Virus record (IMG/VR): IMGVR_UViG_3300034196_000113
Location: 1-59,045 of that record
DNA: 59,045 bases
Reading direction: 5' to 3' (one strand)
Source of the DNA: a virus
Positions 1-59,045 of the stretch are shown piece by piece; the first letter of the stretch is position 1; each line of letters opens with the position of its first letter. The notes beneath the pieces are model-generated. The model ran no database searches. It had not been told where the DNA came from and saw nothing but the letters and a program-made list of their open reading frames with translations. The position numbers and the translations under genes are program-made.

Positions 1-173
1 CGCCTTCGCCCAGGGGGACGCCGGACCCTCGCCCCTGACCCTCGCCCAGGGGGACGCTCGCCTTCGCCCAGGGGGACGCCGGACCCTCGCCCCTGACCCT
101 CGCCCAGGGGGACGCTCGCCTTCGCCCAGGGGGACGCCGGACCCTCGCCCCTGACCCTCGCCCTGGGGGACGC
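1..173. repeat. Three tandem 58-bp repeats
   Basis: Three nearly identical 58-bp GC-rich units start at positions 1, 59 and 117. Each contains two copies of a core reading CGCCCAGGGGGACG. The third copy differs slightly (CCCTGGGGG). The window begins inside or at the edge of this tract, so the true copy number may be larger. No convincing coding frame crosses it. It may mark a contig break at a repeat, or a repeat-rich cis site of the element. Confidence 0.9.
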
Positions 174-3414: not shown

Positions 3415-3876
3415 TCAGTGGCGAACGAGGCTGAGCAAATTGGCGATGCAGCGCAGGCCGGCGGCGCGTTGCTCGGGGGTGCGTCGCGAGTAGCCGGCGA
3501 TGGTCAGTCCGCGGTTGCGGGCCCGCTGGTCGTCGGGGTGGGACAGGGCGCAGGCGGTACGGAATTCGGCGATGCTCGGTGGCCAGGGGCAGGTTGCGCG
3601 GCAGATCGACAGTCCGCGGGCGATTTCCTCTGGCGTGGCGCCGGCCAGTCCCTCGGCCCATTCGAGTGCAAGCACTTCGGTCGCAAAGCCGGCAATGTTC
3701 TTTTCCCATTTCACGCCCCAGATCATGGCGAAATGCTCTAAGAGCAGGGCGATCTCGGATTCAAAATGGAAGTTTGCCGCCGGGGAAGAGGCTCTTAAGG
3801 TGCTCGAATTTAAGTCGGTGTTGTTCTTTTCGCTGTTCGTTGAGAGTGAATGCGTCTGGGGTGTGGGCTGTGCCAT
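3415..3876 (-). CDS. Replication protein P-like (helicase-loader position)
   Basis: About 153 residues from the ATG at 3876, preceded by GGTGGAAAG seven bases away; a GTG at 3888 is an alternative. The middle reads HFAMIWGVKWEKNIAG..ALEWAEGLAGATPEEIARGL, then WPPSIAEFRTAC. This is the layout of phage replication proteins of the lambda P/DnaT group that recruit the host DnaB helicase. The 5' end overlaps the O-like gene by 116 bases; both frames look coding there. Its position immediately after an O-like initiator supports the call. Confidence 0.65.
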   Translation of the reverse strand: MAQPTPQTHSLSTNSEKNNTDLNSSTLRASSPAANFHFESEIALLLEHFAMIWGVKWEKNIAGFATEVLALEWAEGLAGATPEEIARGLSICRATCPWPPSIAEFRTACALSHPDDQRARNRGLTIAGYSRRTPEQRAAGLRCIANLLSLVRH

Positions 3877-4972
3877 TGGTCTTTCCACCGGGGTTGCTAT
3901 TGAGCGGCGTGTCGAGCTGACCGATGTAGTTTTCGCAATTGCTGGATCGGAATAGCGTGGCGGGTCGCAGGTATTGCCGCATGGCGTCGTCCGATCCCCA
4001 TTCCGCCGTCTTGCGGTCGATGACCCGTAACAGTTCCGACTTACCGTAATCCAGGATGCGCGCTTTGGCTAGGGCGGCGCCAGCCGTCGCCTTGCCGGTG
4101 TTCGTGCGGCTGCGGAAGGCGGTTCCGGCTTTCGCGTTGAGGTAATCGTACACATCGTCCACATCGTGCATCGTCGGGCTACTGCCCGACAAATGTGGAG
4201 GTTGCGGTTGGTGTTCGGGGATCGGCGCGGGGGGGGACAGGGGGAGGTCTTTTTGTTTACCTTCTTTGTTTATGTCTAATGATCGCGCGCGCGAGGCAAG
4301 CGTGTCCGAGCAATCTTTGACCACTTCGGGGGCAAAATCGGGGGCGAAAGGGGCGGGGGGGGTGCAATGGGTTGCATCGGGGGAAGTCCGGGGGGTGCAA
4401 CCGGTTGCATCGGGGAATCCCCGGGGGGTGCAACCGGTTGCATCGGGGAATCCCCGGGGGTGCAACTGGTTGCATCGGGCAATCTCCCAGGTGGGTGGTG
4501 GATTGGATGGCTCAGGCGCCGCATTATTGTTCATAAGCACCGGCCCTATTCGGATCGTGGTCGCGTAATCATACACAGCCCAGCTACTCTTGGGTTCGGG
4601 AACGGATGAAGGAGGGGGATTGGACGGGCGTCGAGCGCTATCGCCCCGTGTTCTTTCACGTAGTTTCTTATCCGACAATCGGTCGGTCGCCGGGGCTATA
4701 TCCCCGACCGCAAGACGGTAAACCGGGGCCCTTCCAGGCGTGCGCTCCAACGTCAATAAACCCCCCGTTTCCAGGCTTAGAATGCAGTACCGGATGGCGC
4801 GCTTCGTCAGTCCGATGTCCCGCTCCAGCCGTTTCATATTCGGCACGGCAATGTGATCCCCGGTGTTGTCGTCACCCCGGCTCGCCTGTCTGGCGAGCGA
4901 CACGAGGATAAATTTCGCGCTTGGATTCGCAATCTCTTGGCCATAAGCCCAGTTCATCGCCGCATCGCTCAT
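3761..4972 (-). CDS. Replication initiator O-like, wHTH plus phage C-terminal domain
   Basis: A 403-residue protein. Residues about 1-95 form a helix-turn-helix region (ERDIGLTKRAIRYCILSLE, then GGLLTLERTPGR). A Pro-rich linker holds three 10-11-residue repeats of the type GFPDATGCTP plus diverged copies (about 165-200). The C-terminus (about 275-355) has VYDYLNAKAGTAFRS, VIDRKTAEW and MRQYLRPATLF, the conserved phage replication C-terminal domain (Phg_2220_C type). It binds the origin and recruits the P-like protein in comparable phages. The repeated linker is encoded by DNA iterons inside the gene, as in lambda O. It starts 9 bases after the upstream stop. Confidence 0.75.
   Translation of the reverse strand: MSDAAMNWAYGQEIANPSAKFILVSLARQASRGDDNTGDHIAVPNMKRLERDIGLTKRAIRYCILSLETGGLLTLERTPGRAPVYRLAVGDIAPATDRLSDKKLRERTRGDSARRPSNPPPSSVPEPKSSWAVYDYATTIRIGPVLMNNNAAPEPSNPPPTWEIARCNQLHPRGFPDATGCTPRGFPDATGCTPRTSPDATHCTPPAPFAPDFAPEVVKDCSDTLASRARSLDINKEGKQKDLPLSPPAPIPEHQPQPPHLSGSSPTMHDVDDVYDYLNAKAGTAFRSRTNTGKATAGAALAKARILDYGKSELLRVIDRKTAEWGSDDAMRQYLRPATLFRSSNCENYIGQLDTPLNSNPGGKTNGTAHTPDAFTLNEQRKEQHRLKFEHLKSLFPGGKLPF
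4363..4480. repeat. Four origin-like iterons inside the O-like gene
   Basis: Palindromic cores occur at 4363-4376, 4396-4409, 4429-4442 and 4461-4474, spaced 33, 33 and 32 bases apart. The two central cores are the perfect palindrome TGCAACCGGTTGCA; the outer two each carry small changes. They are joined by GC-rich linkers (CGGGGAATCCCC). An AT-rich stretch (4250-4285) lies beside them. Four palindromic iterons in the middle of an O-type gene beside an AT-rich segment is the arrangement of the lambda origin, so this is probably the lytic origin. Confidence 0.75.
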
Positions 4973-6227: not shown

Positions 6228-6343
6228 GTGGACAAATCTCCTGTTCAAAGTGGACAAATCTCCTGTTCAAAGTGGACAAATCTCCTGTTCTATGTGACAT
6301 TATTTGAGCGTGTCCCTGTGGATAACTTTTAGCCTGCGGATAA
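6228..6343 (+). other. Plasmid-type origin: three 22-bp iterons and DnaA boxes
   Basis: Three tandem copies of GTGGACAAATCTCCTGTTC start at 6228, 6250 and 6272 (22-bp period, one turn-multiple apart). A perfect DnaA box in reverse orientation, TGTGGATAA, lies at 6317-6325, and a one-mismatch copy, TGCGGATAA, lies at 6335-6343, just before the rep start codon. Iterons plus DnaA boxes directly upstream of a Rep_3 gene define a theta-type plasmid origin, and usually also the site of Rep autoregulation. Confidence 0.85.
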
Positions 6344-6345
6344 CC

Positions 6346-7224
6346 ATGACTCCTGCCGATAGCTCGCTCGTCACTCAAGCAAACCAAGTTGTTGAATCGT
6401 CTTACAAATTGACGCTGGCCGAGAAGCGCCTAATCCTCGTCGTGTTGACGAAGATCGACAGCCACCCCGACAAGCCCGCGGCACGGCCGGAAACGCTGAT
6501 CGAGATCGACGCAAGCGAGGTATCGGCGCATTTGCACCTGCCGCAGAGCGAGGCATATTTGATGCTCAAGGAAGCCGCGGATCGTCTGGCCGAGCGCTGG
6601 ATCATTATCGACCGGCCCCACCCCAGGAAGCCGAAGATGAAGCAGACCAAGACCCGTTGGGTGTCGGCGATTTCCTACATACCGGACGAAGGCAAGGTGC
6701 TTCTGCGCTTAGCCGAGGACGTGCTTCCGTATCTCACGCATCTGGCCGGCGAGTTTGTCCGCTACAGCATCGACCAAGTCGCCGATATGTCGTCGGTTTA
6801 CGCGATCCGGTTCTATGAGTTGCTGTTGCAATGGCTGGGGGAAGGTCAACGCGACGTTCCGCTTGACTGGCTGCGGGAAAAATTCGCGCTTCCCGATTCC
6901 TATAGCAACATTCGCGACTTGAAGCGCCGGGTTGTCGATCCTGCCGTAGAGCAGATCAACCTACATAGCAACCTCGAGGTTTCCTACGTACAGCGCAAGC
7001 GCGGGCGAATCGTGCAGTCGTTTCTTTTCACGTTCGGTGTCAAACAAGAACCCAAGCCGGCGCCCGCCGCCAAGCGTTCTCCCCGCACCAACAAGAAGGC
7101 GGAAACAGAAGCCCGGATAACCGCCGCGGCCAAGCCCGGCGAAACCCGCGAGCAGGTAATAGATCGGCTGGAACAGCTCCGCAAGCTCAAGGACGCCGTG
7201 AACGCCCCGGCGCCTAAGCCTTGA
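6346..7224 (+). CDS. rep: Plasmid replication initiator, Rep_3 family
   Basis: 292 residues from the ATG at 6346; an upstream TTG would include the DnaA boxes, so I reject it. The N-terminal winged-helix region has the family pattern VVESSYKLTLAEKRLILVVL, then LIEIDASEVSAHL. The second winged helix has VYAIRFYELLLQW, WLREKFALPDSYSNIRDLKRRVVDPAVEQIN. The C-terminal 60 residues are basic and Ala/Pro/Lys-rich. Rep_3 proteins bind iterons and load host replication proteins; those iterons lie directly upstream. This gene is the clearest sign that the phage can live as a plasmid. Confidence 0.9.
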   Translation: MTPADSSLVTQANQVVESSYKLTLAEKRLILVVLTKIDSHPDKPAARPETLIEIDASEVSAHLHLPQSEAYLMLKEAADRLAERWIIIDRPHPRKPKMKQTKTRWVSAISYIPDEGKVLLRLAEDVLPYLTHLAGEFVRYSIDQVADMSSVYAIRFYELLLQWLGEGQRDVPLDWLREKFALPDSYSNIRDLKRRVVDPAVEQINLHSNLEVSYVQRKRGRIVQSFLFTFGVKQEPKPAPAAKRSPRTNKKAETEARITAAAKPGETREQVIDRLEQLRKLKDAVNAPAPKP

Positions 7225-8110: not shown

Positions 8111-8143
8111 CCGGCTGCATTGTACCGGGGAAAAGATTCCCGG

Positions 8144-8632
8144 GCGAGGACACGAGCCGTATCGAGCGCGAGAACCGTCTAAGTAGTGCGACCAGCCGTT
8201 GAGTCGAGAGTACCGGGGTCGAAAGCGAAGCCGTGTGGAAAGAGGGAACCGGAGCGACTACGCGATAGCCGCAACGTCAACGAGAATCGAACTACCCGTG
8301 CGATAGTCGTGCAGTCGAAGAGTACCGGTCTGAAGACGCGACACTCAGCCGCTCCAGCGACGCGAATCGAGGGACAAGAGCGACAGCCGTCTTTCCAGTG
8401 AGGACCGGTTCGGATGCGCGACATCCCGAAAAGGATACGTGAAAATACTGTTGTCACGGTAATGTTTTGTTGGTAGGATTTTCCCGGTGGCAGGGATGCC
8501 GCTGGCCAATGAGCCGGGTAAAATGCGAGAACCGTTGGTAAAGCGCGACAAGTCGTGTTCGATACCAGAACCGAACCAGCGATGCGATAAGTCTTGCTCG
8601 TTGTGCGAATCGTAAACAATGCGCGAAAGCTA
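8144..8632 (+). repeat. TIGR-like array, segment 1 (about 12 units, partly decayed)
   Basis: Alternating motifs of the type GCGACCAGCCG / GCGATAGCCG (motif A) and GCGAGAACCG or shorter GAACCG/GAATCG forms (motif B) recur with a 38-39-base period. Examples: B at 8166, A at 8186, then degenerate pairs to about 8415. Units from roughly 8420 to 8530 are barely recognisable; clear ones resume at 8526. The segment between B and the next A is 10 bases and differs in every unit. It is on the same strand as the genes that follow. No coding frame is supported. Confidence 0.8.
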
Positions 8633-8842
8633 ATGACGAACGACCCCGACGACAATCCCCCGTCTCCGAGTTATGACGACCCGGTATTCTTCACGCCAGG
8701 TTGCACGGTGCTGTATCAAGAAGTCGCCTGGGTGGTCCGCCGCGTCAATGTCGGAGCGGACGGGAAGGTCTACTCGCTGAACATCGACCGGCCTGGGGTG
8801 ACGACGTGCGTGGGGCCGAGTCATGTGATTAGGGTTGAGTGA
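8633..8842 (+). CDS. Small protein inside the array region, unknown
   Basis: 69 residues from the ATG at 8633; a TTG at 8594 lies inside array sequence. The N-terminus is Asp/Pro-rich and acidic. The rest looks like a compact beta fold (GCTVLYQEVAWVVRRVN, then GKVYSLNIDRPGV). It is flanked on both sides by array segments and is on the same strand, so it is probably transcribed with them. I do not recognise the family. Whether it acts with the array is unknown. Confidence 0.6.
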   Translation: MTNDPDDNPPSPSYDDPVFFTPGCTVLYQEVAWVVRRVNVGADGKVYSLNIDRPGVTTCVGPSHVIRVE

Positions 8843-8849
8843 GCCGACA

Positions 8850-9846
8850 TCAACACGGGAACCGTGCCGGATATGCGAAGCCTGGGGTAACGTGGGATCT
8901 GTGTCAACAGTGCGAAGTCGGGCAAAGGGCGAGAACCGTTTCGGAAGTGCGAAGCCGTTGTCAGAGTGTGGACCGCGCCATCTGCGCGAAGTCGGGCGAA
9001 TTGCGAGTACCGAATCAGAAGTGCAAGCCGCCATGTCAACGAGAACCGTGGAAGACAAGCGATCAGTCGAGTTGTGGGCGAGAACCGCGCGCGAAGTGCG
9101 ATAGCCGGGTTCCGCGTATGAAGCGCGCCCGAAATGCGATAGTCGAGAAATCCGCGAGAAACCGTGCGTTTAGTGCGATAGTCGAGAAGTCAGCGGGAAC
9201 CGTGCGGGGGTGCGATGAACGAGCCGAAAAGCCGGCGAGAACCTAAGACCAAATGCGAGTCGTGAAGCCGATGTGAATCGGTATAGTTGTGCGACAATCC
9301 GTAAATATAGCGAGAACCGCATCTTGAGTGAGAAGCCATGAAATTGGCGTGAACCGGAGAAGTTGTGCGATAGCCGCAAAGTATGCGAGAACCGGAAGGC
9401 CGACGCGATAGCCGGGCGGATGCGAGATACCGCAGTCGAGGTGCGAGAAGCCGTGAAGTAGGTCAGAACCGGAAAACGAACGCGATAGCCGTTCCGTCTG
9501 TGGGAACTGTACGTGCGGTGCGATAGCCGCGTAGATCGCTAGAACCGAAGCAAGCGCGCATTAGGTCAATAGCCGTATGAAATGTGAAAACCGGGCCGCG
9601 CGTGCGACGAGCCGACAGACTAGCAAGAACCGAAAACGATGCGCGATCAGCCGCTTGTCCAGCCTGAACCGTATGAAGAATGCGACCAGCCGCAATGCTG
9701 ACGAGAGCCGCGAACCCTGCGCGAGAAGCCGCTAAGAAAGAGTGAACCGTGCCGTCAATGCGATCAGTCGTAATTGACGTGAGAACCGTACAACCTGCGC
9801 GCGAAGCCGCAACATGAGTCTGAACCGTGACAATAAAGCGAGAGCA
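8850..9846 (+). repeat. TIGR-like array, segment 2 (about 25 units)
   Basis: Same architecture as segment 1, running from the stop of the small gene to the leader of the Tas-like gene. Typical units around 9375: motif A GCGATAGCCG, 8 variable bases, motif B GCGAGAACCG, 10 variable bases, next A. The last unit runs into the leader of the following gene. Motif A varies at two internal positions (GATAG, GAGAAG, GACCAG, GATCAG); motif B often keeps only GAACCG. Variable segments are all different. Confidence 0.85.
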
Positions 9847-9853
9847 ACAAACA

Positions 9854-11044
9854 ATGAATGAAGCAAGTGCGATACCGAGCGACGACAGCGAAAAAGACGG
9901 CAAGAAGTTCAAGAAGAAAGAACTCAAGGAGCAGTTGGCCAAGAAGGCAAAGGAGATCAAAGAGCAGACCAAGGAAATGCTGGAGCAGGAGAAGCCGCCC
10001 GAACAGTTGCAGCCGATGATCCGGCTGAACAAAGACGGGGTTGCCGCCCTGTTGGCCGGGCAATCCGGGGGGCCGATGCCGTCGGCGGGGGTTGCCGGGG
10101 CGTCGAATATCTCCGAGGCGCGCATCCTGGTCGATCTGTATTACGCGATGCAGGAGTACCGCAAGGGCTTCGACAATCAGGTGGGGGCCATCGAGCGGGG
10201 GGCCGATCAGGCGACCACGCACGTCAGCGCAGACTTCATCGGCACCCAAATCGACGTGCTGGAGAGCAACGCCAAGCTGTTCCTCGAGGTGTTCGCGTCC
10301 TCGCATCCCATGTGGGGCTGGTTTAAGGCCGTGCATGGGATCGGTCCCGTGCTCGCCGCCGGGCTCATTGCCCACTTCGGAAGCCGCGCCCTCCCGCCCA
10401 CGGTGGGCCATTGGTGGCGATTCGCAGGCCTCGATCCCAGCCAACGATGGTTGAAAGCCGATGCGCTGTCCGACCTGTGGAACGAGCAGGAAGGCGACAT
10501 CGACCAGCGGACCCGCAACGTCGCGGCCATTGTGGGCCGCTCGCCCGACACGGTGATTCGGGATGCGACCGTCGATTTTAAGACCGGGGAGACCAAGCCG
10601 CTGACCCGGGCGGGAGCGCTCAAATCGTTGGCGCGGATTCCGTTCAATCGGCCATTGAAGACCCTTTGTTGGAAGGTCGGAGATCAATTCGTGAAGCTGG
10701 GGGCCAGAGAGGACGCCTTTTATGCTCGGTATTACCGCAACCGCAAAGCCCAAGAGATCGCCCGCAATGAGGCCGGCGAGCGTGCCGCATTGGCTGCGAA
10801 GACCTTATCTGAAAAACCGAGCCATGCGCAACGGGCGACCTATGCGGACGGGCGCTTACCGGACGGGCGGGTAGACTTAATGGCGAGACGGGCGACCGTC
10901 AAGTTGTTTCTCTCTCATTTGCATGAAGTGTGGTGGAGGGTCGAGCATGACGGAGAAATGCCGCCGAAGCCATTCTCTGTAAGCATTCAGGGTCATGCAC
11001 ATTACATACCGCCACCACACTTGGATGCCGTAGGGCTGGAATAG
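9854..11044 (+). CDS. Tas-like protein: Nop/IS110 C-terminal-type domain, no nuclease
   Basis: 396 residues from the ATG at 9854; the GTG at 9827 lies in array sequence. Residues 14-48 are a Lys/Glu-rich coiled coil. The core has KAVHGIGPVLAAGLIAHFG (159-176), GHWWRFAGLDPSQ (185-197), then after an approximately 60-residue insertion PFNRPLKTLCWKVGDQFVK (263-281) and YARYYRNRKAQEIARNEAGE (290-309). The end has VKLFLSHLHEVWW and HAHYIPPP. This is the C-terminal (Transposase_20) module of IS110 transposases, equivalent in fold to the Nop domain of box C/D proteins. There is no DEDD/RuvC or HNH domain, so it is not an intact transposase. A Nop/IS110-like protein embedded in a two-spacer array matches TIGR-Tas, in its nuclease-free form. 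Expected role: binding array RNAs and, through them, DNA. Confidence 0.8.
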   Translation: MNEASAIPSDDSEKDGKKFKKKELKEQLAKKAKEIKEQTKEMLEQEKPPEQLQPMIRLNKDGVAALLAGQSGGPMPSAGVAGASNISEARILVDLYYAMQEYRKGFDNQVGAIERGADQATTHVSADFIGTQIDVLESNAKLFLEVFASSHPMWGWFKAVHGIGPVLAAGLIAHFGSRALPPTVGHWWRFAGLDPSQRWLKADALSDLWNEQEGDIDQRTRNVAAIVGRSPDTVIRDATVDFKTGETKPLTRAGALKSLARIPFNRPLKTLCWKVGDQFVKLGAREDAFYARYYRNRKAQEIARNEAGERAALAAKTLSEKPSHAQRATYADGRLPDGRVDLMARRATVKLFLSHLHEVWWRVEHDGEMPPKPFSVSIQGHAHYIPPPHLDAVGLE

Positions 11045-11049
11045 AGAGT

Positions 11050-12826
11050 CGTACAGCGCGCGAGAATCGACGCCAGAGTGCGAGCCTGGCGAGAGGTCTG
11101 AACCGAATCGAACGCGCGACAAGTCGAGTAGTACGCGAGAACCGTATGCCAAGCGCGAGAAGCCTGGATTTTGGCGAGAACCGTACCAAGCACGCGATAG
11201 CCGTCTTGGAGGCGAGAACCTGACAAATAGTGCGATAAGTCGGGCCTTTTGTGGGAACCGTATAAACGGCGCGACCAGCCGCAGCTCCAACAAGAACCGT
11301 CCCGCCCGTGCGATAGCCGTGGGATCTATGTGAACCGGGCGAAAGGAGCGACAAGCCGAATTCCAGGCGTGAACCGAATGCGAAGCGCGACAAGTCGTGA
11401 ATACTGCGTGAGCCGTACAAGAGGCGCGACCAGTCGAAAACCAAACGTGAACCGAAACCGATACGCGATTAGCCGTATTGGCTGTGGGAATCTACACCGT
11501 GGCGCGATAGCCGGGCCTTTGGCGAGAACCGTATTCGCAACGCGAGAAGCCGCACAGTTCGCGTGAACCCCTTGTCTGGTGCGACAAGCCGTGAAGCTAG
11601 TGAGAACCGAACACTGAGTGCGAGAAGCCGTGAAGCGTGCGAGAACCGTCAATCTAACGCGAGAAGCCGTGAACCGTGAGTGAATCGTCACGCGAACGCG
11701 ATAAGTCGAGCAGGCGACGAGAACCGAGTAGCGGACGCGATAGCCGTGATAAAAGCGGAGAACCCGAACACCAAACGCGATAGCCGCGGACTCGGCGTGA
11801 ACCGAGCAGTTCGCGCGATGAATGATCCGGGATGAAGGCGAGTACCGTTGAGGTAGCGACCAGCCGTGAAAGCCAAGAGAACCGTCGCGGATATGCGAGA
11901 AGCCGCGAAGAAGACGTGAACCGAAAGCGTAGTGCGAGAAGCCGCGAAGAAGACGTGAACCTAAGGCGTAGTGCGATAAGCCTCACGTATACGAGAACCG
12001 TGGAGGCGTGCGATGAAAGAGCCGTGAATTACGTTAGAATCGTAGCCGTCGCGCGATGAGTCGAGAAAATAGCGAAAACCGTTTCTAGAGTGCGATGAGT
12101 CCAGAAAAGAGTGAGAAACCGCCGGAATAGTGCGATCCGCGCCAAACGCGAAAGCCGGGCCTAGTGTGAATAGCCCGTAGAGATATGAGAAACCGAGAGA
12201 ATTGAGCGAGTCTTGAGGGTACACGAAGCGAACTACGCGTGCGATAAGCCGGAAGTAAAGCCAGAACCGATTCTCGCGTGCGACCAGCCGTGGGAGTAAG
12301 TGTAACCGTCGGGCCGGCGCGACCAGCCGTTAATCAGGTGGGAACCGTCTATAAAGTGCGAGAAGCCGCGGATCGTGTTTGAACCGACTGGGCCATGCGA
12401 GAAGCCGCGCGGTTCGCGAGAACCGAAATGAAGGCGCGACAAGCCGACGAACTAACACGAACCGTTATCGGGGTGCGACCAGCCAATTGAACTGGCGAGA
12501 ACCGCGTGGGTGATGCGAGAAGCCGTGACAGGCATTTGAACCGTGTAGGTAATGCGACCAGCCGCCTAACTGGCGAGAACCGTAAGAAAAACGCGACCAG
12601 CCGTGTCTAATGAGTGAATCGTGCCGATGGTGCGAGAAGCCTTCAACCCAGTGTGAATCGGAAGAACTGTGCGACCAGCCGTCAGTTCAGCGAGAATCTG
12701 AGTTGGAGTGCGATAAGCCGGCAGACAGAGCGAACCGGAATAAGGAGCGAAGCCGTATGATCACGCGTGCCGACCCAAAGCGCGATCAGTCGAGATAGCC
12801 AAGAGAACCGGTGAAGTCGCGCGATG
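11050..12826 (+). repeat. TIGR-like array, segment 3 (about 45 units)
   Basis: The longest segment. I counted about 45 copies of motif A (consensus GCGANNAGCCG) alternating with motif B (consensus GNGAGAACCG). In the clean part (11100-11690) the B-to-A segment is exactly 10 bases in 14 consecutive units, and the A-to-B segment is 8 (or 9 when B begins CGTGAACC), giving a 39-base period, or 38 when A is one base short. Units at 11895 and 11934 are near-identical, showing tandem duplication. Units around 12060-12240 are degenerate. All are in plus orientation. Confidence 0.9.
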
Positions 12827-12841
12827 GAGTACCCTACTCTT

Positions 12842-12859
12842 TGCCGCAGGGATGCGGCA
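12842..12859 (+). terminator. Hairpin at the end of array segment 3
   Basis: TGCCGCA-GGGA-TGCGGCA is a perfect 7-bp stem with a 4-base loop just after the last array unit and before the next start codon. No T-tract follows, so it is more likely an RNA-end or processing structure than a strong terminator. Confidence 0.4.
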
Positions 12860-12883
12860 CCACTCGGCGATCAGAGTTCTACG

Positions 12884-13126
12884 ATGATAAAGCTCAAGAA
12901 ACTGAACAAAGAGAAGTGGGAAGCAATCGAATACCTCACGATTTGGCAGTTCGCTTGTATTGCCAACGACGTGGAGCCGCCGGAGTCGTTAGAGGAATTC
13001 CTGGACTCGTATGCCGGGTTCGTGCATATCGGGGTCTTGTTTATGATGCTCTCTATTGCAGAGAAAGCCGGTCAATTCGAGATTATAAAAAACCCCGACG
13101 AGCCGGATAAGAAGGTTGTTCACTGA
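12884..13126 (+). CDS. Small phage protein, unknown
   Basis: 80 residues from the ATG at 12884; an in-frame ATG at 12824 lies in the last array motif and across the hairpin, so I prefer the shorter form. Pattern: KWEAIEYLTIWQFACIANDV, EPPESLEEFLDSY. Helical and acidic at the end. It sits 15 bases before the RecE-like gene and is probably co-transcribed with it. No family recognised. Confidence 0.6.
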   Translation: MIKLKKLNKEKWEAIEYLTIWQFACIANDVEPPESLEEFLDSYAGFVHIGVLFMMLSIAEKAGQFEIIKNPDEPDKKVVH

Positions 13127-13141
13127 GCGGGCGATACCGGA

Positions 13142-14092
13142 ATGAGCCAAGACTTGATCGTTGTGCAGAAAGGCGACCCGTGGGAGCCCCCGGCGATCAT
13201 CTACGATCTGCCGGCCGAGCAGTATTTCGGCATCGAAGCGGCCAGCTCGCATTTGTTGTCCGCGATGGTGCGGCAATCCCCGCTGCACGCGAAGACCGAG
13301 AAGCCGCCGACCAAGGCCAAAGACCTGGGGTCGCTGGCCCACCTGATGATCCTGGAGCCCGACCGGGCGGCGACGGACGTGCAGGTTAAGCCGCGCAATG
13401 CCGACCGTGCGAGCAATGCCGGGAAGCGGGCGCTGGTGGGGTGGATGCTGGAGATATTGAAATGTCCCGAGCCGGCGACGACCCCGGGGCTTGCGCCGGG
13501 CAAGGCGCTGGACGAAATGCTCGCGGTGCTGGAGCCCATGCTTGCAACGTCCGATGCGTTCGTGGCGACCCAGCAAACATTCGAGACGGCGCAGCGGATG
13601 CGCGATTCGGTATTTGCCAAGGCGATTGGGCGGGCTATCTTTGAAGACGGGAAAGCGGAAGTGACGATGCTCGCCAAAGATCCGGAGACCGGCGTGCTGT
13701 GCCGGATCAGGGCGGATTGGATGCCCGATGGCCACTGGTTGATGGTGGATCTGAAATCGGCGGCGAGCGTGTGTTACGACGAGTTTGCCAAGGCGGCGGG
13801 GAAATATAACTACCATATCCAAGCCGCGTTTTATCGGCATGTGGAAGCGCTGGTCAGCGGCGTCTTGAAGAAAAAATTCCTGCATGTGGTGGTAGAAAAC
13901 GTCGAGCCGTTCGACTGTGCATTCTACGAGCTGGACGAGGTTGCTCTGGATCACGGGACGCGGCGCTACGAACAGGGACTCGATTTATATGCCCGCTGTA
14001 TGTTGGCGGGATATTTCCCGGGGGTGCAATGGGATTGGGGGGTCAACGATTACCGGATCGAGTCGCTGCAATTGCCCAAGTGGGCGCTGTAG
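13142..14092 (+). CDS. RecE-like exonuclease (PD-(D/E)XK)
   Basis: A 316-residue protein with the features of the RecE C-terminal/DUF3799 nuclease: SSHLLSAM near residue 35, GSLAHLMILEPD with His67 (63-74), a glutamate around 173, then IRADWM and MVDLKSAAS with Asp203 and Lys205, and KYNYHIQAAFYR (221-232). These are the catalytic motifs of the 5'-3' double-strand exonucleases that feed annealing proteins in phage recombination. The next gene is RecT-like, which supports the pairing. Leader: GCGATACCGG lies directly before the start, close to array motif A. Confidence 0.85.
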   Translation: MSQDLIVVQKGDPWEPPAIIYDLPAEQYFGIEAASSHLLSAMVRQSPLHAKTEKPPTKAKDLGSLAHLMILEPDRAATDVQVKPRNADRASNAGKRALVGWMLEILKCPEPATTPGLAPGKALDEMLAVLEPMLATSDAFVATQQTFETAQRMRDSVFAKAIGRAIFEDGKAEVTMLAKDPETGVLCRIRADWMPDGHWLMVDLKSAASVCYDEFAKAAGKYNYHIQAAFYRHVEALVSGVLKKKFLHVVVENVEPFDCAFYELDEVALDHGTRRYEQGLDLYARCMLAGYFPGVQWDWGVNDYRIESLQLPKWAL

Positions 14093-14134
14093 CGCGCCGG
14101 GACCATTCTTCACTTTGCGAGAGCACCCAAGCCC

Positions 14135-15418
14135 ATGCCCAACGAAATGGCAACGATTCAGTCGTCGAACGAAATGACGCTGGTCTCCCGGCCGCAACCC
14201 GTCAACATTTTCGGTACACCGGAGAATTTCGCCTTTGCCGCCCGGATGGCCAAAGCCTTCACCAGTTCGGCCTTGGTGCCTAAGCACTACCGGGGCGAGG
14301 AAAACCTGGGGAGCGTCCTGATCGCAATCGACCTGGCGAACCGGCTGGACGTGTCCCCGCTCATGGTCATGCAAAATATGTCCCCTATCGAGGGCAAGCC
14401 GGCCTGGAGTTCCAAGTTCCTGATCGCGGCCGTGAACGCGAGCGGGCGCTTTACCCCGTTGCGGTTCAAATTCGAGCGGGACGAGAAGCCGCACGACGTG
14501 GAGTGGACCGACTACGTGTGGGGCGACGGGAAGCGCCCGACGCCCACGAAGAAGGTGGCGAAGGACATTTTGAACCGACGGTGCCGCGCCTACGCGACGG
14601 ATCTGCGCACCGGCCTGGAGTTGGAAGGGCCGGAAGTCTCCATCGTCATGGCCATCCAAGAGCGATGGTATTTCCGCAATGGGTCCAAATGGCCCACGAT
14701 GGGCGAGCTGATGCTGAGCTACCGGGCCGCGAGCCTTTGGACCGGCATCTTCGCGCCCGAGCAGACGATGGGGTTGCCCACGGCAGACGATGCGGCCGAC
14801 GCGATCGATGTCACGCCCGAGCGGGTGATGGAGACGAAGGAACCGGAAGTGGCCAGCGGATTGGACTCGCTGTCGGCGCGGGCCCGCGAACTGCGCGAGA
14901 AGGAGACGGACGCAGGGCCCACCGAGCCCGAGCCCACCCCCGCGCCCAAGGAAGCCAAGAAAGCGCCCGAGGACGATGCCGATGCGGATGTGTCGGGCGA
15001 ATGGCCCCGCGCCGCGCCCAATGGCGTGCTCTACGACGCCCGCGGCGTAACGCATATCCCCGGCTGTCACTCGGGCGGAAAGACCTGTAACCGGGACGGG
15101 TCTTGGCGGCTGCGTAAGGGAGTGGCCGAAGTGGCGGCGAACGCGATGGAAGCCCGCTACCCGAGAGTCGACCCGAAGAGCCTCGAGGCCCCTCCCCCGC
15201 CGGATGACGAACCCGGCGAGGCGTTCGCGGCGCCAACAAAAGGCGGGGACAATGACGGCCCCAGTTACGACGACGCCCTAGAGTGGATCGCGTCGGCCGA
15301 TACCACCGAAGAAGTCGACGGGGGTCTGGACGCGGCGCGCGATCTGGATCTTAGCGAGGGACAGCGGGCGGATCTCGTGGAGTATGCCGAGAAGCGCCGG
15401 GCGGAATTGATGAGGTAG
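14135..15418 (+). CDS. RecT-like single-strand annealing protein
   Basis: A 427-residue protein. Residues about 20-230 carry the pattern ENLGSVLIAIDLANRLDVSP, LMVMQNMSPIEGKPAWSSKF, LIAAVNASGRFTPLRF, and MGELMLSYRAASLW, which I know from phage RecT-family proteins encoded beside exonucleases. The C-terminal half is acidic, Pro/Glu/Lys-rich, with a small Cys/His patch (GCHSGGKTC) and a helical end. It should anneal strands resected by the upstream exonuclease, for replication-linked recombination. A GCGAGAGC leader box lies 12 bases before the start. Confidence 0.7.
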   Translation: MPNEMATIQSSNEMTLVSRPQPVNIFGTPENFAFAARMAKAFTSSALVPKHYRGEENLGSVLIAIDLANRLDVSPLMVMQNMSPIEGKPAWSSKFLIAAVNASGRFTPLRFKFERDEKPHDVEWTDYVWGDGKRPTPTKKVAKDILNRRCRAYATDLRTGLELEGPEVSIVMAIQERWYFRNGSKWPTMGELMLSYRAASLWTGIFAPEQTMGLPTADDAADAIDVTPERVMETKEPEVASGLDSLSARARELREKETDAGPTEPEPTPAPKEAKKAPEDDADADVSGEWPRAAPNGVLYDARGVTHIPGCHSGGKTCNRDGSWRLRKGVAEVAANAMEARYPRVDPKSLEAPPPPDDEPGEAFAAPTKGGDNDGPSYDDALEWIASADTTEEVDGGLDAARDLDLSEGQRADLVEYAEKRRAELMR

Positions 15419-15543
15419 GAAGTCGTCGCGGTTGCGAGAACCGAGACTTGCGTGCGAGAAGCCTTGCGAGAAGCGAGAACCGCTAACGACGTGCGACAAG
15501 CCGTCCGAAAGACAAGAACCGTCCCGCGAGTGCGATGCTAACC
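15419..15543 (+). repeat. TIGR-like array, segment 4 (about 3 units)
   Basis: Immediately after the RecT-like stop codon: motif B GCGAGAACCG, 10 bases, motif A GCGAGAAGCCT, 8 bases, motif B GCGAGAACCG, 10 bases, motif A GCGACAAGCCG, then a degenerate pair. The spacing rules and strand are the same as in the large segments, although 2.6 kb of coding sequence lies between. It ends at the terminator at 15544, so all four segments could be on one transcript. Confidence 0.85.
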
Positions 15544-15574
15544 GGGTGGGCCGCAGGGCCCACCCTCCCCTTTT
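15544..15574 (+). terminator. Strong terminator between convergent operons
   Basis: GGGTGGGCC-GCAG-GGCCCACCC is a perfect 9-bp stem (15544-15565), followed on the plus strand by TCCCCTTTT. It closes the rightward array/recombination transcript and abuts the last stop codon of the leftward virion operon. Confidence 0.85.
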
Positions 15575-15968
15575 AGTAATGCGCCGCCGGAGGAACCGGG
15601 CCCGGGTCTTCGGTGCCGGGCAGCAACTCCGGGTCGGGCTGGGGCTCGCCTTCTCCACCTTCCCCACCTTCCCCGGGCAGCGAATGGGCCGAGACGGCTT
15701 CCGCAAGCACCTGAGTTTGCGCGTCGAGCGCATCGCGTAGGGCCGTGAGTGCGGCCGGATCGTTCTCGGCAATCGCTTCGTCGAGCTTGTCGCGGATGCC
15801 GGTGATGAGGGTAACCGCCGAGTCGATGGCGCCGCGATTTTCTTCCACTTCCGCGCGCAGACTGTCGAGTAGCTGGGACATAGTATGTGTTCGCTCCAAG
15901 AGAATATCGAGTTGGGCCGTCATTGTAGAGTCCGGTTGGACGAAGACCCGCACTTCTACGAGAGGCAT
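15573..15968 (-). CDS. Coiled-coil phage protein at end of virion operon
   Basis: A 131-residue protein. Residues 20-95 are a predicted coiled coil (DILLERTHTMSQLLDSLRAE, VEENRGAIDSAVTLITGIRD), followed by a Gly/Glu/Pro-rich tail. Proteins of this shape are common after tail genes in siphoviruses, where they are minor virion parts or accessory factors. It is the last gene of the leftward operon, 36 bases after the previous one. Function uncertain. Confidence 0.65.
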   Translation of the reverse strand: MPLVEVRVFVQPDSTMTAQLDILLERTHTMSQLLDSLRAEVEENRGAIDSAVTLITGIRDKLDEAIAENDPAALTALRDALDAQTQVLAEAVSAHSLPGEGGEGGEGEPQPDPELLPGTEDPGPVPPAAHY

Positions 15969-47723: not shown

Positions 47724-48328
47724 ACGAGCATGGCCCCGTAGTGGGTCATGTCGTCCAAATTCCCCGTGTAGTACCCGTGCCACCAGGCAATGCCGTAGCC
47801 CGCGGCCCCGACGATCTCCCCGAGTTTCTGCTGGCAGAATTCCAGGTAGTGGGCCCGCACTTTGTCGTTGCCCCACTGGGCCGCGGCTTTCTTGGTCGAG
47901 CCCACCTTCCAGGCGCCCTTGACGCGCGCGTTCTGCCTCAAGCCGTCGTTCACGGCGAGGACCATCCGCGGGGCGAGAAGGCGACGGGCTTTGAAGAACC
48001 CCTCAATGGTGGGCCAGGGCTCGCCGAAGGGATCAACGTCCAGGACTTCCACCGTGGAGGTCCGAAAGAGCCCCGCCCCGAGCATCGCTTCCGCCTTGCC
48101 CTCGTAGATCGCCCAGGTCGGGCGCTGGCGTGCCAGAAACTCGGCTTTGTCCGGGTCTTTCTCGATAGCGCCGCCCGGGAAGCCGCTATACAGCCGCTTC
48201 CAGATTTCCCCGCGTCCGCCATGCGTCTCCAGGACGAACGGCTTAGCGATTCCCAGCCGCTCCAGCAAGTTCCGCCGCAACGCGATCTTCTCCGCCCCGG
48301 TCGAGTTGACTTGCCGAATCACGGTCAT
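47693..48328 (-). CDS. SAM methyltransferase-like protein, Trm1-type motif
   Basis: 211 residues from the ATG at 48328. FVLETHGGRGEIWKRLYSGF is a motif I region, GGAIEKDPDKAEFLARQRPT a motif II/III region, and VEVLDVDPFGEPWPTIEGFF contains D-P-F-G-x-P, as in Trm1 tRNA guanine methyltransferases. Substrate not determinable: tRNA, DNA or other. It is encoded with, and overlaps by 86 bases, a ParB-like gene. Such pairs occur in phages and integrative elements. Confidence 0.6.
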   Translation of the reverse strand: MTVIRQVNSTGAEKIALRRNLLERLGIAKPFVLETHGGRGEIWKRLYSGFPGGAIEKDPDKAEFLARQRPTWAIYEGKAEAMLGAGLFRTSTVEVLDVDPFGEPWPTIEGFFKARRLLAPRMVLAVNDGLRQNARVKGAWKVGSTKKAAAQWGNDKVRAHYLEFCQQKLGEIVGAAGYGIAWWHGYYTGNLDDMTHYGAMLVQGGGTAPFS

Positions 48329-49040
48329 TGGAATCGACTCCCTGCCATTGCAGATAGACGCGGGCAAGCTCCTGGATCGCCTCTGCCCGATTGATCTTGC
48401 CGGTTGCGGCAATCGCCCGCTCGACCAGCTCGGCCTCGTCGATCAGGTACACGGCTTTGATAACAACCTTGCGCTCGCTGAACGACTTTTGAACCGAGTC
48501 GAAGTTGGTCTTGTCGCGGCCCACGTATTGCGCGGCCAGTTCCAGGGCTTCGCGCGCCTGCGCCTCCAGGTCGTCGAACAGGCCGACCATCGCATCGCTG
48601 CCGGCGGGCCCGTCGTGGCGAATCTCGTTCAGGTTGCGCTGGACCGCGGAATAGTCCGCTTCCGATAGCGCCGTGAGGGCATCGTGCGAGGCCAGGGCGA
48701 TGCGCTCTTCGTCGTCGGTCAGCGTCAGGGGCTCGACCGGAACCTTCTCCCCCGCCGCCTTGGACAGCATCGTTCGCAGATGCCCGTCGATGATGAGGTC
48801 GTGCCGGCCGGTGCGCCGGCTCACCTTCACCCGATCCGTCCAACCCAGCTCGGAGAGCACGCCCCGCATGATCGCTCGCTGGTGCTCCGGGTGGATCCGC
48901 CAGTTATCCGGATGGGCCAGGAGCGTGTCCGGATCGACCCATTCGACCTTGCTCGGATCGGCGAACTTGGAGCGGAAAGCCCCGCGGGGGCCGGTGGATT
49001 GCGCCGCCGGAGGGCGCCGTTTGCTTGGTATGTCGCTCAT
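48243..49040 (-). CDS. ParB-like N-terminal domain protein
   Basis: A 265-residue protein. Residues 30-95 have the ParB/Srx fold pattern: LLAHPDNWRIHPEHQRAIMR, GVLSELGWTDRVKV, HDLIIDGHLRTML. The rest is helical. No ParA is present, so classical partition is doubtful. Similar stand-alone proteins in phages sit next to methyltransferases. A TACAAT box five bases before the start may be its -10. It reads away from the structured RNA region. Confidence 0.7.
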   Translation of the reverse strand: MSDIPSKRRPPAAQSTGPRGAFRSKFADPSKVEWVDPDTLLAHPDNWRIHPEHQRAIMRGVLSELGWTDRVKVSRRTGRHDLIIDGHLRTMLSKAAGEKVPVEPLTLTDDEERIALASHDALTALSEADYSAVQRNLNEIRHDGPAGSDAMVGLFDDLEAQAREALELAAQYVGRDKTNFDSVQKSFSERKVVIKAVYLIDEAELVERAIAATGKINRAEAIQELARVYLQWQGVDSNDRDSASQLDRGGEDRVAAELAGAAGNR

Positions 49041-49761: not shown

Positions 49762-50784
49762 ATGGACAATTTGAGCAATTGCGTCACCACGGTCAAGCCT
49801 TCTTATGCCGCGATGTCGATAGAGTGCTTTTTGAGGGCGCGGACCCCCGTTTTTCTGTGGGGCCCCCCGGGTATTGGGAAATCGGACGTGGTCCGTCAGG
49901 TCGCCAAGCGCGCCGGCAGGACCGTGATCGACATTCGGGCCGTGCAGTTCGACCCGGTCGATCTGCGGGGCATTCCTGCCCGCGACAAGCGGGGCTATAC
50001 CGTCTGGTCGATCCCGGATCTGTTGCCGCGCGAAGACAGGGACGGCCCCGAGGGCATCCTGTTTCTGGACGAGCTGACTTCGGCCTCGCTGTCCATGCAG
50101 GCAGCGTGCTACCAGCTCGTACTGGATCGCAAGCTCGGGGATTACGTCCTGCCCGACGGCTGGGACATTATCGGCGCCGGGAACCGGGAGACCGACCGGG
50201 GCGTGACGATTCGGATGCCCACCCCGCTGGCGAATCGGTTCGGTCACCTGGACGTGGCGACCGATTTGAAGGACTGGTGCCGCTGGGCGAATAAGAAGGG
50301 CATCGAGCCCGAGATTATCGCGTTCCTGCGCTTCCGGCCGGAGCTTCTGCACGCGTTCGACCCCCGCTCCGGCGAGAAGGCGTTTCCGACGCCCCGGTCT
50401 TGGGAAATGACCAGTCGGACCTTCGCCGCCGATGTCCCGCTGGCCGTGCAGATGCCCGTCTATGCCGGGCTGGTCGGACAGGCCGCGGCTATCGAACTGA
50501 CCGGGTTCCTGCGGATCTGGGCAACCCTGCCGTCGATTGACGGCATCTTGATGAATCCCCAGACCGCGCCGGTCCCGACCGAAAGCTCGGCCCTGTTCGC
50601 CGTCACTGCCGCGCTTGCCAAGCGGGCCGACGATGCGAACTTCCCCCGGGTGTGGACCTATGCGAAGCGCCTGCCCCCCGAGTACACCGTTCTTCTTATG
50701 AGCGATGCCACCCGACGCAATTCGGCGTTGGAGCAAACCAAATCGTTCGTCGAGTTCGGTAGCGAATACGCGGACGTGCTATGA
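49762..50784 (+). CDS. MoxR-type AAA+ ATPase
   Basis: A 340-residue protein. Walker A GPPGIGKS (34-41), Walker B ILFLDE (99-104), sensor region IIGAGNRETDRGV, and arginine-finger region LANRFGHLDV. MoxR ATPases remodel partner proteins together with VWA-domain proteins; such a partner lies at 53249. The leader has GCGAGA six bases before the start. It is the first gene after the structured RNA region and its stop overlaps the next start. Confidence 0.85.
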   Translation: MDNLSNCVTTVKPSYAAMSIECFLRARTPVFLWGPPGIGKSDVVRQVAKRAGRTVIDIRAVQFDPVDLRGIPARDKRGYTVWSIPDLLPREDRDGPEGILFLDELTSASLSMQAACYQLVLDRKLGDYVLPDGWDIIGAGNRETDRGVTIRMPTPLANRFGHLDVATDLKDWCRWANKKGIEPEIIAFLRFRPELLHAFDPRSGEKAFPTPRSWEMTSRTFAADVPLAVQMPVYAGLVGQAAAIELTGFLRIWATLPSIDGILMNPQTAPVPTESSALFAVTAALAKRADDANFPRVWTYAKRLPPEYTVLLMSDATRRNSALEQTKSFVEFGSEYADVL

Positions 50785-52838: not shown

Positions 52839-53246
52839 ATGTCGGCTTTTCTCTGCTCGCCGCAGCATATTGCTGCAATCGTTTGCTTCGGCCCGATTAC
52901 CGACGACTACGGCCACTATTCCGTTGGCCCCTTGCCCGAGGAAGTCGCCGAACTGTTGGCCCGCGAAAACGTAAAGAGCGTGGACTATCGCTATCCGCGC
53001 GATATCGACGAGCAAGTCAACGAGGTATTCGTTAAAGAGTGCATCGCCGCGGCAAAGATACTCAACAAGAAAAGACCGAACGTCTATACCGCGGTGCAGG
53101 TTATCAAACTCTGCAATTCGCTGGACTACCAGTCTTGCGAGCATCCCGGCTGGGAAGCGTCGAATGCGAAGGAGACGCTTGACGCCATAGTCGCTATCGC
53201 AATCAGGAACCTGCCCGGTTACGAAGCCGCCGAGTGGAGCATTTAG
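52839..53246 (+). CDS. Conserved phage protein, unknown
   Basis: A 135-residue protein with AGGAG upstream. The C-terminal half has KLCNSLDYQSCEHPGWEASN, a signature I recognise from a widespread phage and mobile-element family without known function. The 3' end overlaps nothing; the VWA gene follows immediately. Confidence 0.65.
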   Translation: MSAFLCSPQHIAAIVCFGPITDDYGHYSVGPLPEEVAELLARENVKSVDYRYPRDIDEQVNEVFVKECIAAAKILNKKRPNVYTAVQVIKLCNSLDYQSCEHPGWEASNAKETLDAIVAIAIRNLPGYEAAEWSI

Positions 53247-53248
53247 CA

Positions 53249-54742
53249 ATGAAGTCCGACGAACCGAGTAGGTCTCTGAACAGGATGGAGATCGCGCGCA
53301 TCGCGATGGTCCTGGAAGCGCCGTTTTTCGGGGCGCTTGCACTCAAGCTGAAACTGACCGAAGCCCCGTGGCTTCCGTATGCGATGGCCGTTGACGGAGT
53401 GCATCTGTACTATCACAAAGATCGCATTTTAGCGATTAACATGGGCCAGCTAAAAGGAATGATCTGCCATGAGACGCTGCATGTGGCCTTGGGCCACCCG
53501 TGGCGCGCGAAGGGCCGCGATCCCGACCGGTGGAATGTGGCGGCTGACTATGTGATTAACCCGATGGTGATATCGGCCGGCATGGAGTTGGCCGACGGGA
53601 TGCTCTTCGCGCCCGAATTCGACGGGCTTCCGTCGGAAACCGTCTATGCTCGGCTGGGGAAGAAGGACGGCGACCCGAACGCATCGGCGCCCCCCGAGGA
53701 AGAGCAGGGCGAAGAAGGGGAGGAACAAGGCGATGGCCAGGGAGAAGGCGAAGGGGAAGAGGAAGGCGAGGGAGAGCAGGAAGGGGAGCAGGAGGGCGAG
53801 GGAGAAGGGGACGGCGAGGGAGAGGGAGAGGGCGACGGAGACGCCGACCTGGAAAGCCAAGGAGAGGGCTCGGGCGAGGGAGAGGGCGGGGGAGAAGGGG
53901 ACGGTCAGGGAGACGGGGACGGGGACGGTGGAGAGGGAGAGGGAGAGGGCCAGGGAGACAGCCAGGGCGACGGACATGCGCCCTCCCCTACCGCGACCAC
54001 GCCCGACGGTCGCCCGCTACCCAGCCCGGAAGCGGCCGGGTCCGGGGCCGTCCTGGAGCCCCCTCCGGACGAGAACGGCAACCCCCAGAGCGATTCCGAC
54101 GCAACCGAACAGGAAGCGGAATGGAAGATGGCGGTTGCCCAAGCCGCCCAGCTCGCCCGCGCCGCCGGCAAGCTGCCCGGTTTCATGGAAGAGATCCTGA
54201 AAGACGATCTGGCCCCAAAGGCACCTTGGCAACAACTGTTGCGCCAGTACATGAACAGCTATGCCAAGGACGACTATACGTGGCAGAAACCCAACAGGCG
54301 CCATGTGGCGAACGGGCTATACCTGCCGAGCATCCGATCCGAAACGGTCGGGACCATCGCGCTCTTTTTCGACACGTCGGGATCGATCGATAGCGTCATG
54401 CTCGCCCAGTTCGTGGCCGAAGTGAATTCGATCCTCGAGGACATCAAGCCCGAACGACTCCTGTTGATCCAGGTAGACACCCAGGTCAACGAGGTCCAGG
54501 ACTTGTCCTACGACGATTTGCCCTTCGAGTTCACGGCCAAGGGCCGCGGGGGTACGTACTTCCAACCGGCATTCGACTGGATCGAAGAGCAGGAGATCGA
54601 ACCGGTGTGCGCGGTGTACCTCACCGACATGGCGCCGGGCGACGTTCCCCGAGATCCGGGGTATCCGGTGCTGTGGGTGGACTTCGCCGCCTACGATTGG
54701 CTTCCCGACATGCCGTTCGGCGAACGGATCTACATTCAATAG
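53249..54742 (+). CDS. HExxH / VWA-domain protein (MoxR partner)
   Basis: 497 residues from the ATG at 53249. Residues 71-83 read MICHETLHVALGH, a zinc-metallopeptidase HExxH motif of the DUF2201 N-terminal type. A 90-residue tract of Gly/Glu/Asp/Gln (about 150-240) links it to a C-terminal VWA-like domain with the metal-site motif FFDTSGSID (about 372-380) and RGGTYFQPAFDWI. Proteins with this layout pair with MoxR ATPases, as encoded at 49762. The cellular target is unknown. Confidence 0.8.
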   Translation: MKSDEPSRSLNRMEIARIAMVLEAPFFGALALKLKLTEAPWLPYAMAVDGVHLYYHKDRILAINMGQLKGMICHETLHVALGHPWRAKGRDPDRWNVAADYVINPMVISAGMELADGMLFAPEFDGLPSETVYARLGKKDGDPNASAPPEEEQGEEGEEQGDGQGEGEGEEEGEGEQEGEQEGEGEGDGEGEGEGDGDADLESQGEGSGEGEGGGEGDGQGDGDGDGGEGEGEGQGDSQGDGHAPSPTATTPDGRPLPSPEAAGSGAVLEPPPDENGNPQSDSDATEQEAEWKMAVAQAAQLARAAGKLPGFMEEILKDDLAPKAPWQQLLRQYMNSYAKDDYTWQKPNRRHVANGLYLPSIRSETVGTIALFFDTSGSIDSVMLAQFVAEVNSILEDIKPERLLLIQVDTQVNEVQDLSYDDLPFEFTAKGRGGTYFQPAFDWIEEQEIEPVCAVYLTDMAPGDVPRDPGYPVLWVDFAAYDWLPDMPFGERIYIQ

Positions 54743-58932: not shown

Positions 58933-59045
58933 CATTGCCTATCCATTGCCTATCCATTGCCCCGTCATTGCCCCGTCATTGCCCCATGCTATTCAATAGA
59001 ACGCGCGGTTTGTATTCTATTCCCTGCCCCCTGCCCCCTGCCCCC
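58933..59045. repeat. Right-end tandem repeats and inverted repeat
   Basis: Five 11-bp units starting CATTGCC at 58933, 58944, 58955, 58966 and 58977 (two variants, ending TATC or CCGT). Then AATAGAA (58995-59001) and its inverse TTCTATT (59015-59021), then CTGCCCC repeated to the window end. As at the left end, the window stops within a repeat. Confidence 0.85.

What the first reader, a model, noticed from the sequence alone, without database searches (positions are those of the whole stretch)
11100..11690. Variable segments of fixed length between conserved motifs
In 14 consecutive units the segment from motif B to motif A is exactly 10 bases and the segment from A to B is 8 (or 9), while their sequences all differ. 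Length under strict control with sequence free to vary is what guide segments show; random decay would change lengths too. When motif A loses one base the period becomes 38, so the motif, not the spacer, absorbs the change.
Basis: seen in the sequence. Interest (0 to 1): 0.8.

Follow-up and report, generated by a model that had tools for sequence, protein, structure and literature searches.

The report
Phage TIGR guide-RNA array with TasA
The evenly spaced variable segments are the paired 9-letter guides of a large TIGR array, a recently described guide-RNA system that sits next to its partner protein TasA; the kind of system is known, but what it targets is not.

Summary
The window is a phage contig. 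Alternating "edge" (YGCGA-nn-AGYCG, modal 12 nt) and "loop" (YGAGAAYCG, 9 nt) repeats are separated by 9-nt variable segments. They form five plus-strand blocks between or beside genes from about 8143 to 15545: 84 loops, 81 full units. Without any length preference, 45 of 47 box-to-box distances for spacer A and 45 of 56 for spacer B take one value. Length variation is concentrated in the middle of the edge repeat. The gene between the two largest blocks (9854-11044) passes NCBI's curated TIGR_Tas model (154.9 bits, cut-off 100) and matches TaTasR/TasH structures. No nuclease domain was found, so it is a TasA. Three relatives also carry dual-repeat arrays beside tas: another phage (58% identical protein, 39-nt units) and two Pseudomonadota genomes (36-nt period). 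So this is a TIGR-TasA system (Faure et al. 2025), and the "guide" reading is supported. It is a new member with a large array, variable edges and a CCG box C. I found no convincing target. One pair of units in each phage array looks like an old duplication whose spacers drifted.

The parts
8143..8428 (+). TIGR sub-array 1 (7 full units), degenerate
   Evidence: parser, count; HMM hits
8504..8632 (+). TIGR sub-array 2 (3 full units), ends directly before the ATG of a 69-aa ORF (8633-8842)
8836..9847 (+). TIGR sub-array 3 (23 full units by the parser), starts on the stop codon of the 69-aa ORF (8840-8842) and ends 6 nt before the tas ATG
9854..11044 (+). tasA: TIGR-Tas (Nop-domain family) protein, 396 aa, no nuclease domain found (an in-frame GTG at 9827 is an alternative start)
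   Evidence: NCBIfam NF052498 154.9 bits vs cut-off 100; PDB 9mty E 6e-6 alone, 5.6e-12 with a 3-sequence profile; phrog_4285
11041..12823 (+). TIGR sub-array 4 (46 full units), starts on the tasA stop codon; contains the reported stretch 11100-11690
15417..15545 (+). TIGR sub-array 5 (2 full units plus truncated ends), starts on the stop codon of the RecT-like gene
15544..15565 (+). strong GC hairpin directly after the last edge, followed by TCCCCTTTT: possible terminator
   Evidence: fold of 15536-15580: -23 kcal/mol, z -3.1; not listed by the terminator scan
13142..14092 (+). exonuclease VIII (RecE)-like gene in the same plus-strand cluster
   Evidence: phrog_412 E 2.7e-61
14135..15418 (+). 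RecT-like annealing protein gene, just before sub-array 5
   Evidence: phrog_561 E 3.7e-51

Best explanation
This is a phage-encoded TIGR-TasA system. Shown here: dual alternating repeats with paired 9-nt spacers, on the plus strand, in five blocks around and beside a gene for a TIGR-Tas family protein in which no nuclease was found, and the same pairing of gene and array in three other loci. Inferred from the published work on the family: the array is transcribed, probably with the flanking replication and recombination genes, cut within the edge repeats with the help of TasA, and yields about 80 small guide RNAs (about 39 nt here). A TasA dimer holds each guide; spacer A pairs with one DNA strand and spacer B with the other at a site of about 18 bp, opening and bending the DNA without cutting it. 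My best guess at use is interference with, or control of, other mobile DNA by blocking replication or transcription; that last step is a guess, also raised by the authors of the paper.
For: Protein: passes NCBIfam NF052498 TIGR_Tas_endo (154.9 bits, cut-off 100) and fails the IS110 model (18.7 vs 140); a profile of three homologs hits 9mty (5.6e-12) and TasH 21kl (6.1e-5). Array: 9-nt spacers in 72 of 82 (A) and 74 of 83 (B), edge and loop repeats with matching ends (YG...YCG in both); fixed-length tests. Relatives: L097 phage, 58% identical Tas, 18 of 18 fully parsed units 12+9+9+9 nt, on both sides of tas (one further unit with a broken loop was not parsed); L181, an array of about 36-nt period directly upstream of tas; L186, 36-nt units with 9-nt edge, loop and spacers on both sides of tas. 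Box C mostly ends in G in both repeats of the two phages and in A in both repeats of L186, in line with the paper's statement that the motifs covary. By eye, sub-arrays 2-5 begin with an edge lacking its left half and end with one lacking a normal right half, like the truncated ends in the paper; sub-array 1 is ambiguous.
Against: No transcript or RNP data. No natural target: composite sites (A + reverse complement of B) show no clear excess in the window, L177, L178 or 1.53 Mb of fetched loci. The AlphaFold model was unusable (mean pLDDT 40.8), so the Nop fold rests on sequence homology. Pfam gives no match above its cut-off for the window protein. Units in sub-array 1 and around 12091-12240 are degenerate and may not work. 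Box C here is CCG, not the CCA of the TasR arrays. The terminator is uncertain.
Confidence: 0.95

Rival explanations
1. The repeats are a DNA-level binding array (iteron or centromere type) for a phage protein, and the fixed spacing reflects helical phasing rather than guides.
For: Tandem sites of constant spacing near replication and recombination genes; a Rep3 initiator gene and 22-bp repeats before it lie at 6228-7224.
Against: The repeat ends match the Tas box plan and the adjacent gene passes the curated TIGR-Tas model. Edge length varies from 9 to 17 nt while spacers stay at or near 9, so phasing on DNA is not kept. The gene-array pairing recurs in three other loci, two of them with different motifs and a 36-nt period.
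Confidence: 0.03
2. A decaying simple tandem repeat without function.
For: Repeats are degenerate, and at least one unit duplication per array is seen.
Against: Length is kept where sequence is free and varies inside the edge repeat; 45 of 47 spacer A distances are identical.
Confidence: 0.01
3. An IS110-type mobile element with bridge RNA copies.
For: Weak Transposase_20 and IS110 similarity, and PHROG 'transposase' annotation.
Against: 18.7 bits against an IS110 cut-off of 140; no DEDD domain reported by Pfam; the L097 homolog lacks the N-terminal extension.
Confidence: 0.01

Closest known systems
TIGR-TasA systems with dual-repeat arrays (Faure et al. 2025, PMC12045711; e.g. the Flavonifractor plautii locus named there)
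   Same: Nop-family protein without nuclease; alternating edge and loop repeats of 8-12 nt; 9-nt spacers; arrays upstream and downstream of tas; truncated edges at array ends.
   Different: 81 full units against the 5 to 15 given as most frequent; edge repeat modal 12 nt but variable (9-17), giving 39-nt modal units; box C is CCG and box D is YG with a conserved purine before it; five blocks set tightly between stop and start codons.
TIGR-TasR (TaTasR) and TasH
   Same: Sequence homology of the Nop part; same array plan.
   Different: No RuvC or HNH domain was found in the window protein or in the L097 and L181 homologs.
IS110 transposases with bridge RNA
   Same: Distant homology of the RNA-binding part.
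   Different: No DEDD domain found; below the IS110 model cut-off; guides lie in an array.
Box C/D snoRNA guides
   Same: According to the paper, a related two-guide RNA plan bound by a Nop domain.
   Different: They act on RNA; no fibrillarin partner was looked for here.

Membership tests
TIGR-Tas | Tas (Nop-domain) protein encoded beside the array | tested here: met
   NF052498 154.9 bits, cut-off 100; 9mty 5.6e-12; fold itself not modelled usefully
TIGR-Tas | Two alternating repeats of 8-12 nt separated by 9-nt spacers | tested here: met
   loop 9 nt (about 10 in a few); edge modal 12 nt (49 of 89; others 9-17, 7 of 89 longer than 12); spacer A 9 in 72 of 82, B 9 in 74 of 83
TIGR-Tas | Edge and loop repeats share their box D and box C ends | tested here: met
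   mostly YG...YCG in both in the window; UG...CCG in both in L097; both end in CCA in L186
TIGR-Tas | Arrays upstream and/or downstream of tas, with truncated edges at the ends | tested here: met
   truncation read by eye, sub-array 1 ambiguous
TIGR-Tas | Predicted rho-independent terminator after the array | tested here: inconclusive
   strong hairpin at 15544-15565, not listed by the terminator scan
TIGR-Tas | Processing into unit-length tigRNAs bound by Tas | not testable with these tools
   needs RNA data
TIGR-Tas | Dual-strand DNA targeting by spacer A and spacer B | tested here: inconclusive
   98 units (67 window, 18 L097, 13 L186) against 1.53 Mb: 0 exact sites; 3 sites with one mismatch in the published geometry, 0 in three control geometries; two-mismatch counts 19 against 21, 16 and 22
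TasR/TasH subtype | Fused RuvC or HNH nuclease | tested here: not met
   no nuclease family matched in Pfam; NCBIfam gave no separate nuclease domain in the protein nor in its first 88 residues
IS110 transposase | Full-length IS110 model with DEDD domain | tested here: not met
   18.7 bits vs cut-off 140; no DEDD Pfam match
CRISPR array | Repeats of about 25-36 nt with spacers of similar size | tested here: not met
   repeats are 9 and about 12 nt, spacers 9 nt; cas genes were not searched for

The most novel reading that the evidence does not exclude
The array grows by copying whole units, and its spacers then drift by point mutation under a strict 9-nt length rule, instead of being captured from targets. 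TasA with about 80 near-random guides would then be a standing library of DNA-binding specificities, or a broad DNA-bending system, rather than a memory of past invaders.
Probability: 0.15. Interest if true: 0.75.

Novelty: new member of a known kind. Interest (0 to 1): 0.45.

Why it matters
The authors of the TIGR paper list array growth, spacer origin, natural targets and the role of nuclease-free TasA as open questions. This locus offers an array of about 80 units with an internal duplication, and a related phage whose array is far more regular, so two related TasA phages can be compared for how spacers change. The variable middle of the edge repeat marks where length is tolerated, which fits the reported place of processing.

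Tried and rejected
Self-targeting: 67 window spacer pairs against the array-masked window gave 1 pair with two mismatches at gap 0; at least one such pair arose in 24% of 200 re-pairings. One further pair had one mismatch but at gap 3, outside the gap of 0-2 that the paper reports as tolerated. Rejected as evidence.

Kin targeting: 18 L097 spacer pairs against the window gave 2 pairs with two or fewer mismatches at gap 0. One is 17 of 18 bases at 48774-48791, in codons for IDGHLR of ORF 48243-49040 (I recall this as a ParB-type motif; Pfam gave no match). Two or more such pairs arose in 2% of 200 re-pairings, and one or more with at most one mismatch in 6.5%. This was one of four source-target pairs in that test, so it is suggestive at most. 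The L097 record itself has no such site within three mismatches. The syntenic phage stretch L178 had none with two or fewer mismatches in the published geometry, and one in each of two control geometries. In 1.53 Mb of 164 sequences (fetched loci and the window): 0 exact; 3 with one mismatch in the published geometry (the window site above, and sites in two unrelated contigs, L115 and L166) against 0 in each of three others; at two mismatches 19 against 21, 16 and 22 summed over gaps 0-2. I derived the geometry (A followed by the reverse complement of B) from the paper's overhang and C-5 rule; the paper's two statements of the cut position seem to disagree by one base.

Spacer similarity beyond the two clear pairs: next best pairs (14 of 18 in the window, 13 of 18 in L097) lie within the shuffle range; neighbours are on average little more alike than other pairs in the window (6.06 against 5.62 matches of 18) and less alike in L097 (5.29 against 5.65). 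So duplication is not shown to be the general source of units.

Structure: AlphaFold with two sequences failed (pLDDT 40.8); no fold search was run.

Relatives: none in viral contigs beyond L097 (short peptide patterns, so distant ones would be missed); none in the phages collection for the window protein. For the L097 protein only weak partial hits: Microcystis phage Mvi-JY20, E 3e-3 (not examined for an array), and a Pseudonocardia plasmid, E 7e-4 (not examined). Whole genomes: 0 of 7, 0 of 392, 1 of 398, and 2 of 244 including the same genome; in the rows shown for at most four candidates per genome were scored, so misses are possible. One search used a pattern that I had written wrongly. 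Searches for relatives of the ORF 48243-49040 product and of TerL gave none and one.

Coding: sub-arrays 3 and 4 have stops in all six frames. Rfam: no match at gathering threshold. tRNA: none.

Full report
What is there. The window is an IMG/VR virus record of 59,045 bases with phage head, tail and terminase genes. The reported stretch belongs to a much larger array on the plus strand, in five blocks: about 8143-8428, 8504-8632, 8836-9847, 11041-12823 and 15417-15545. A parser found 89 edge repeats, 84 loop repeats and 81 full units (7, 3, 23, 46 and 2 by block). Spacer A is 9 nt in 72 of 82 and spacer B in 74 of 83; edges are 12 nt in 49 of 89 and otherwise 9-17. Both spacers are 9 nt in 67 of 81 units, or 70 of 81 if a few loops are read as 10 nt. 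The parser mildly favours 9, so I repeated the count with bare anchors and no length preference: 45 of 47 (A) and 45 of 56 (B) at one value, against 38 of 72 for the edge interior. In 200 Markov resamplings the modal counts were at most 1 and 2. Length deviation is commoner in the edge than in either spacer, also after dropping the doubtful anchors.

Anatomy. Loop: YG-AGAA-YCG. Edge: YG-CGA-nn-AG-YCG. Both begin with the same box and end with the same box, and the loop has an A-rich middle, as described for TasR arrays (UG...CCA; PMC12045711). Position 9 of the spacers is a purine in 70 of 70 A and 70 of 70 B in the window and 18 of 18 each in L097, and in 13 of 13 each in L186, so it may belong to box D, leaving 8 free positions. 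Sub-arrays 3, 4 and 5 start on the stop codon of the gene before; sub-array 2 ends directly before an ATG, sub-array 3 ends 6 nt before the tas ATG, and the last edge of sub-array 4 holds the ATG of ORF 12824-13126. So the blocks are probably transcribed with these genes. By eye, sub-arrays 2-5 begin with an edge that lacks its left half, and end with one that lacks a normal right half. The last one is followed by a strong hairpin.

The protein. ORF 9854-11044 lies between the two largest blocks. It matches NCBIfam TIGR_Tas_endo at 154.9 bits (cut-off 100) and IS110 at only 18.7 (cut-off 140). Alone it finds PDB 9mty at 6e-6; a profile of three homologs finds 9mty at 5.6e-12, TasH 21kl at 6.1e-5 and IS621 at 0.19. 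I take 9mty to be TaTasR because its length, 331, is that given for TasR in the paper's figure 2 legend; the entry title was not shown. No nuclease family was found, nor in its first 88 residues. The NCBI model name says endonuclease; this member shows no nuclease domain, so TasA is the fitting label.

Relatives. L097 (phage contig) has a 58% identical protein with 39-nt units on both sides: 18 of 18 fully parsed units are 12+9+9+9, and one more unit with a broken loop was not parsed. Genes that look like the same RecE-like and RecT-like pair follow (read by eye). Two genomes found with profile and protein searches in Pseudomonadota have a tas homolog with arrays of about 36-nt period: L181 upstream, L186 on both sides with edge ATCGAGCCA and loop AAAGAACCA. 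So the four tas genes that I examined for arrays each have one; in these the motifs agree within a locus and differ between the phage pair and the two genomes. The two weak hits in a Microcystis phage and a plasmid were not examined for arrays. Seven of the 40 genomes that had one match to the array pattern were searched for tas and gave none.

Spacer history. One pair of units in each array is more alike than column shuffles allow: 11894/11933 share 17 of 18 spacer bases (null maximum 15 in 300 shuffles), and L097 5590/5824 share 15 of 18 (null maximum 14). The L097 pair is six units apart and differs at three spacer bases. This suggests that whole-unit copying and later spacer change occur; it does not show where most spacers come from, and neighbours are in general hardly more alike than other units.

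Targets. None convincing; details, including results against, are under tried and rejected.

Literature. I read parts 1-3 of the text of PMC12045711 and its sections 9, 10, 24, 44 and the figure legends. Of the other papers I saw search listings only: 19 of 19, 5 of 5, and 20 of 113. Those listings showed no other study of TasA function or natural targets; subscription papers are mostly not held. I did not see the paper's table S1, so I do not claim that this is the largest array known, only that it exceeds the 5 to 15 units given as most frequent.

Verdict. It is a new, large member of a known kind of system, TIGR-TasA.

Noticed in passing
window 6228-7224: About 2.9 exact copies of a 22-bp repeat (GTGGACAAATCTCCTGTTCAAA) directly before a Rep3-type initiator gene. 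With a terminase whose best phage matches are Vibrio phages VPHZ6 and VP882 and Halomonas phage phiHAP-1 (36-39% identity) this suggests a phage-plasmid lifestyle (inference).
   Followed up: partly
window 4357-4497: 33-nt repeats holding the palindrome TGCAACCGGTTGCA inside the ORF of another replication initiation-like protein (3761-4972 minus), as in origins placed within lambda O-type genes (the comparison with lambda is from recall).
   Followed up: no
window 49762-50784 and 53234-54742: An AAA ATPase gene (PF00004 above cut-off; a MoxR-type match is below its cut-off) and a DUF2201 metallopeptidase/VWA-like gene on the plus strand; DNA similar to parts of both is in phage L178.
   Followed up: no
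window 48774-48791 (minus): 17 of 18 bases match the composite target of one spacer pair of the related phage L097, in codons for IDGHLR of ORF 48243-49040; near chance level after controls.
   Followed up: partly
L178: A phage contig stretch with 72% identical TerL and 63-73% DNA identity over the longer pieces shared with the window; a protein search of its record for tas gave no match.
   Followed up: partly
window 1-173 and 58933-58985: Short tandem repeats at both ends of the contig (58-bp unit at the left, 11-bp units at the right).
   Followed up: no
window 9211-9226, 11814-11829, 12009-12024: Three edge repeats carry longer inserts (e.g. TGCGATGAACGAGCCG), 16 nt instead of 12, while the spacers beside them are 7-9 nt.
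   Followed up: partly
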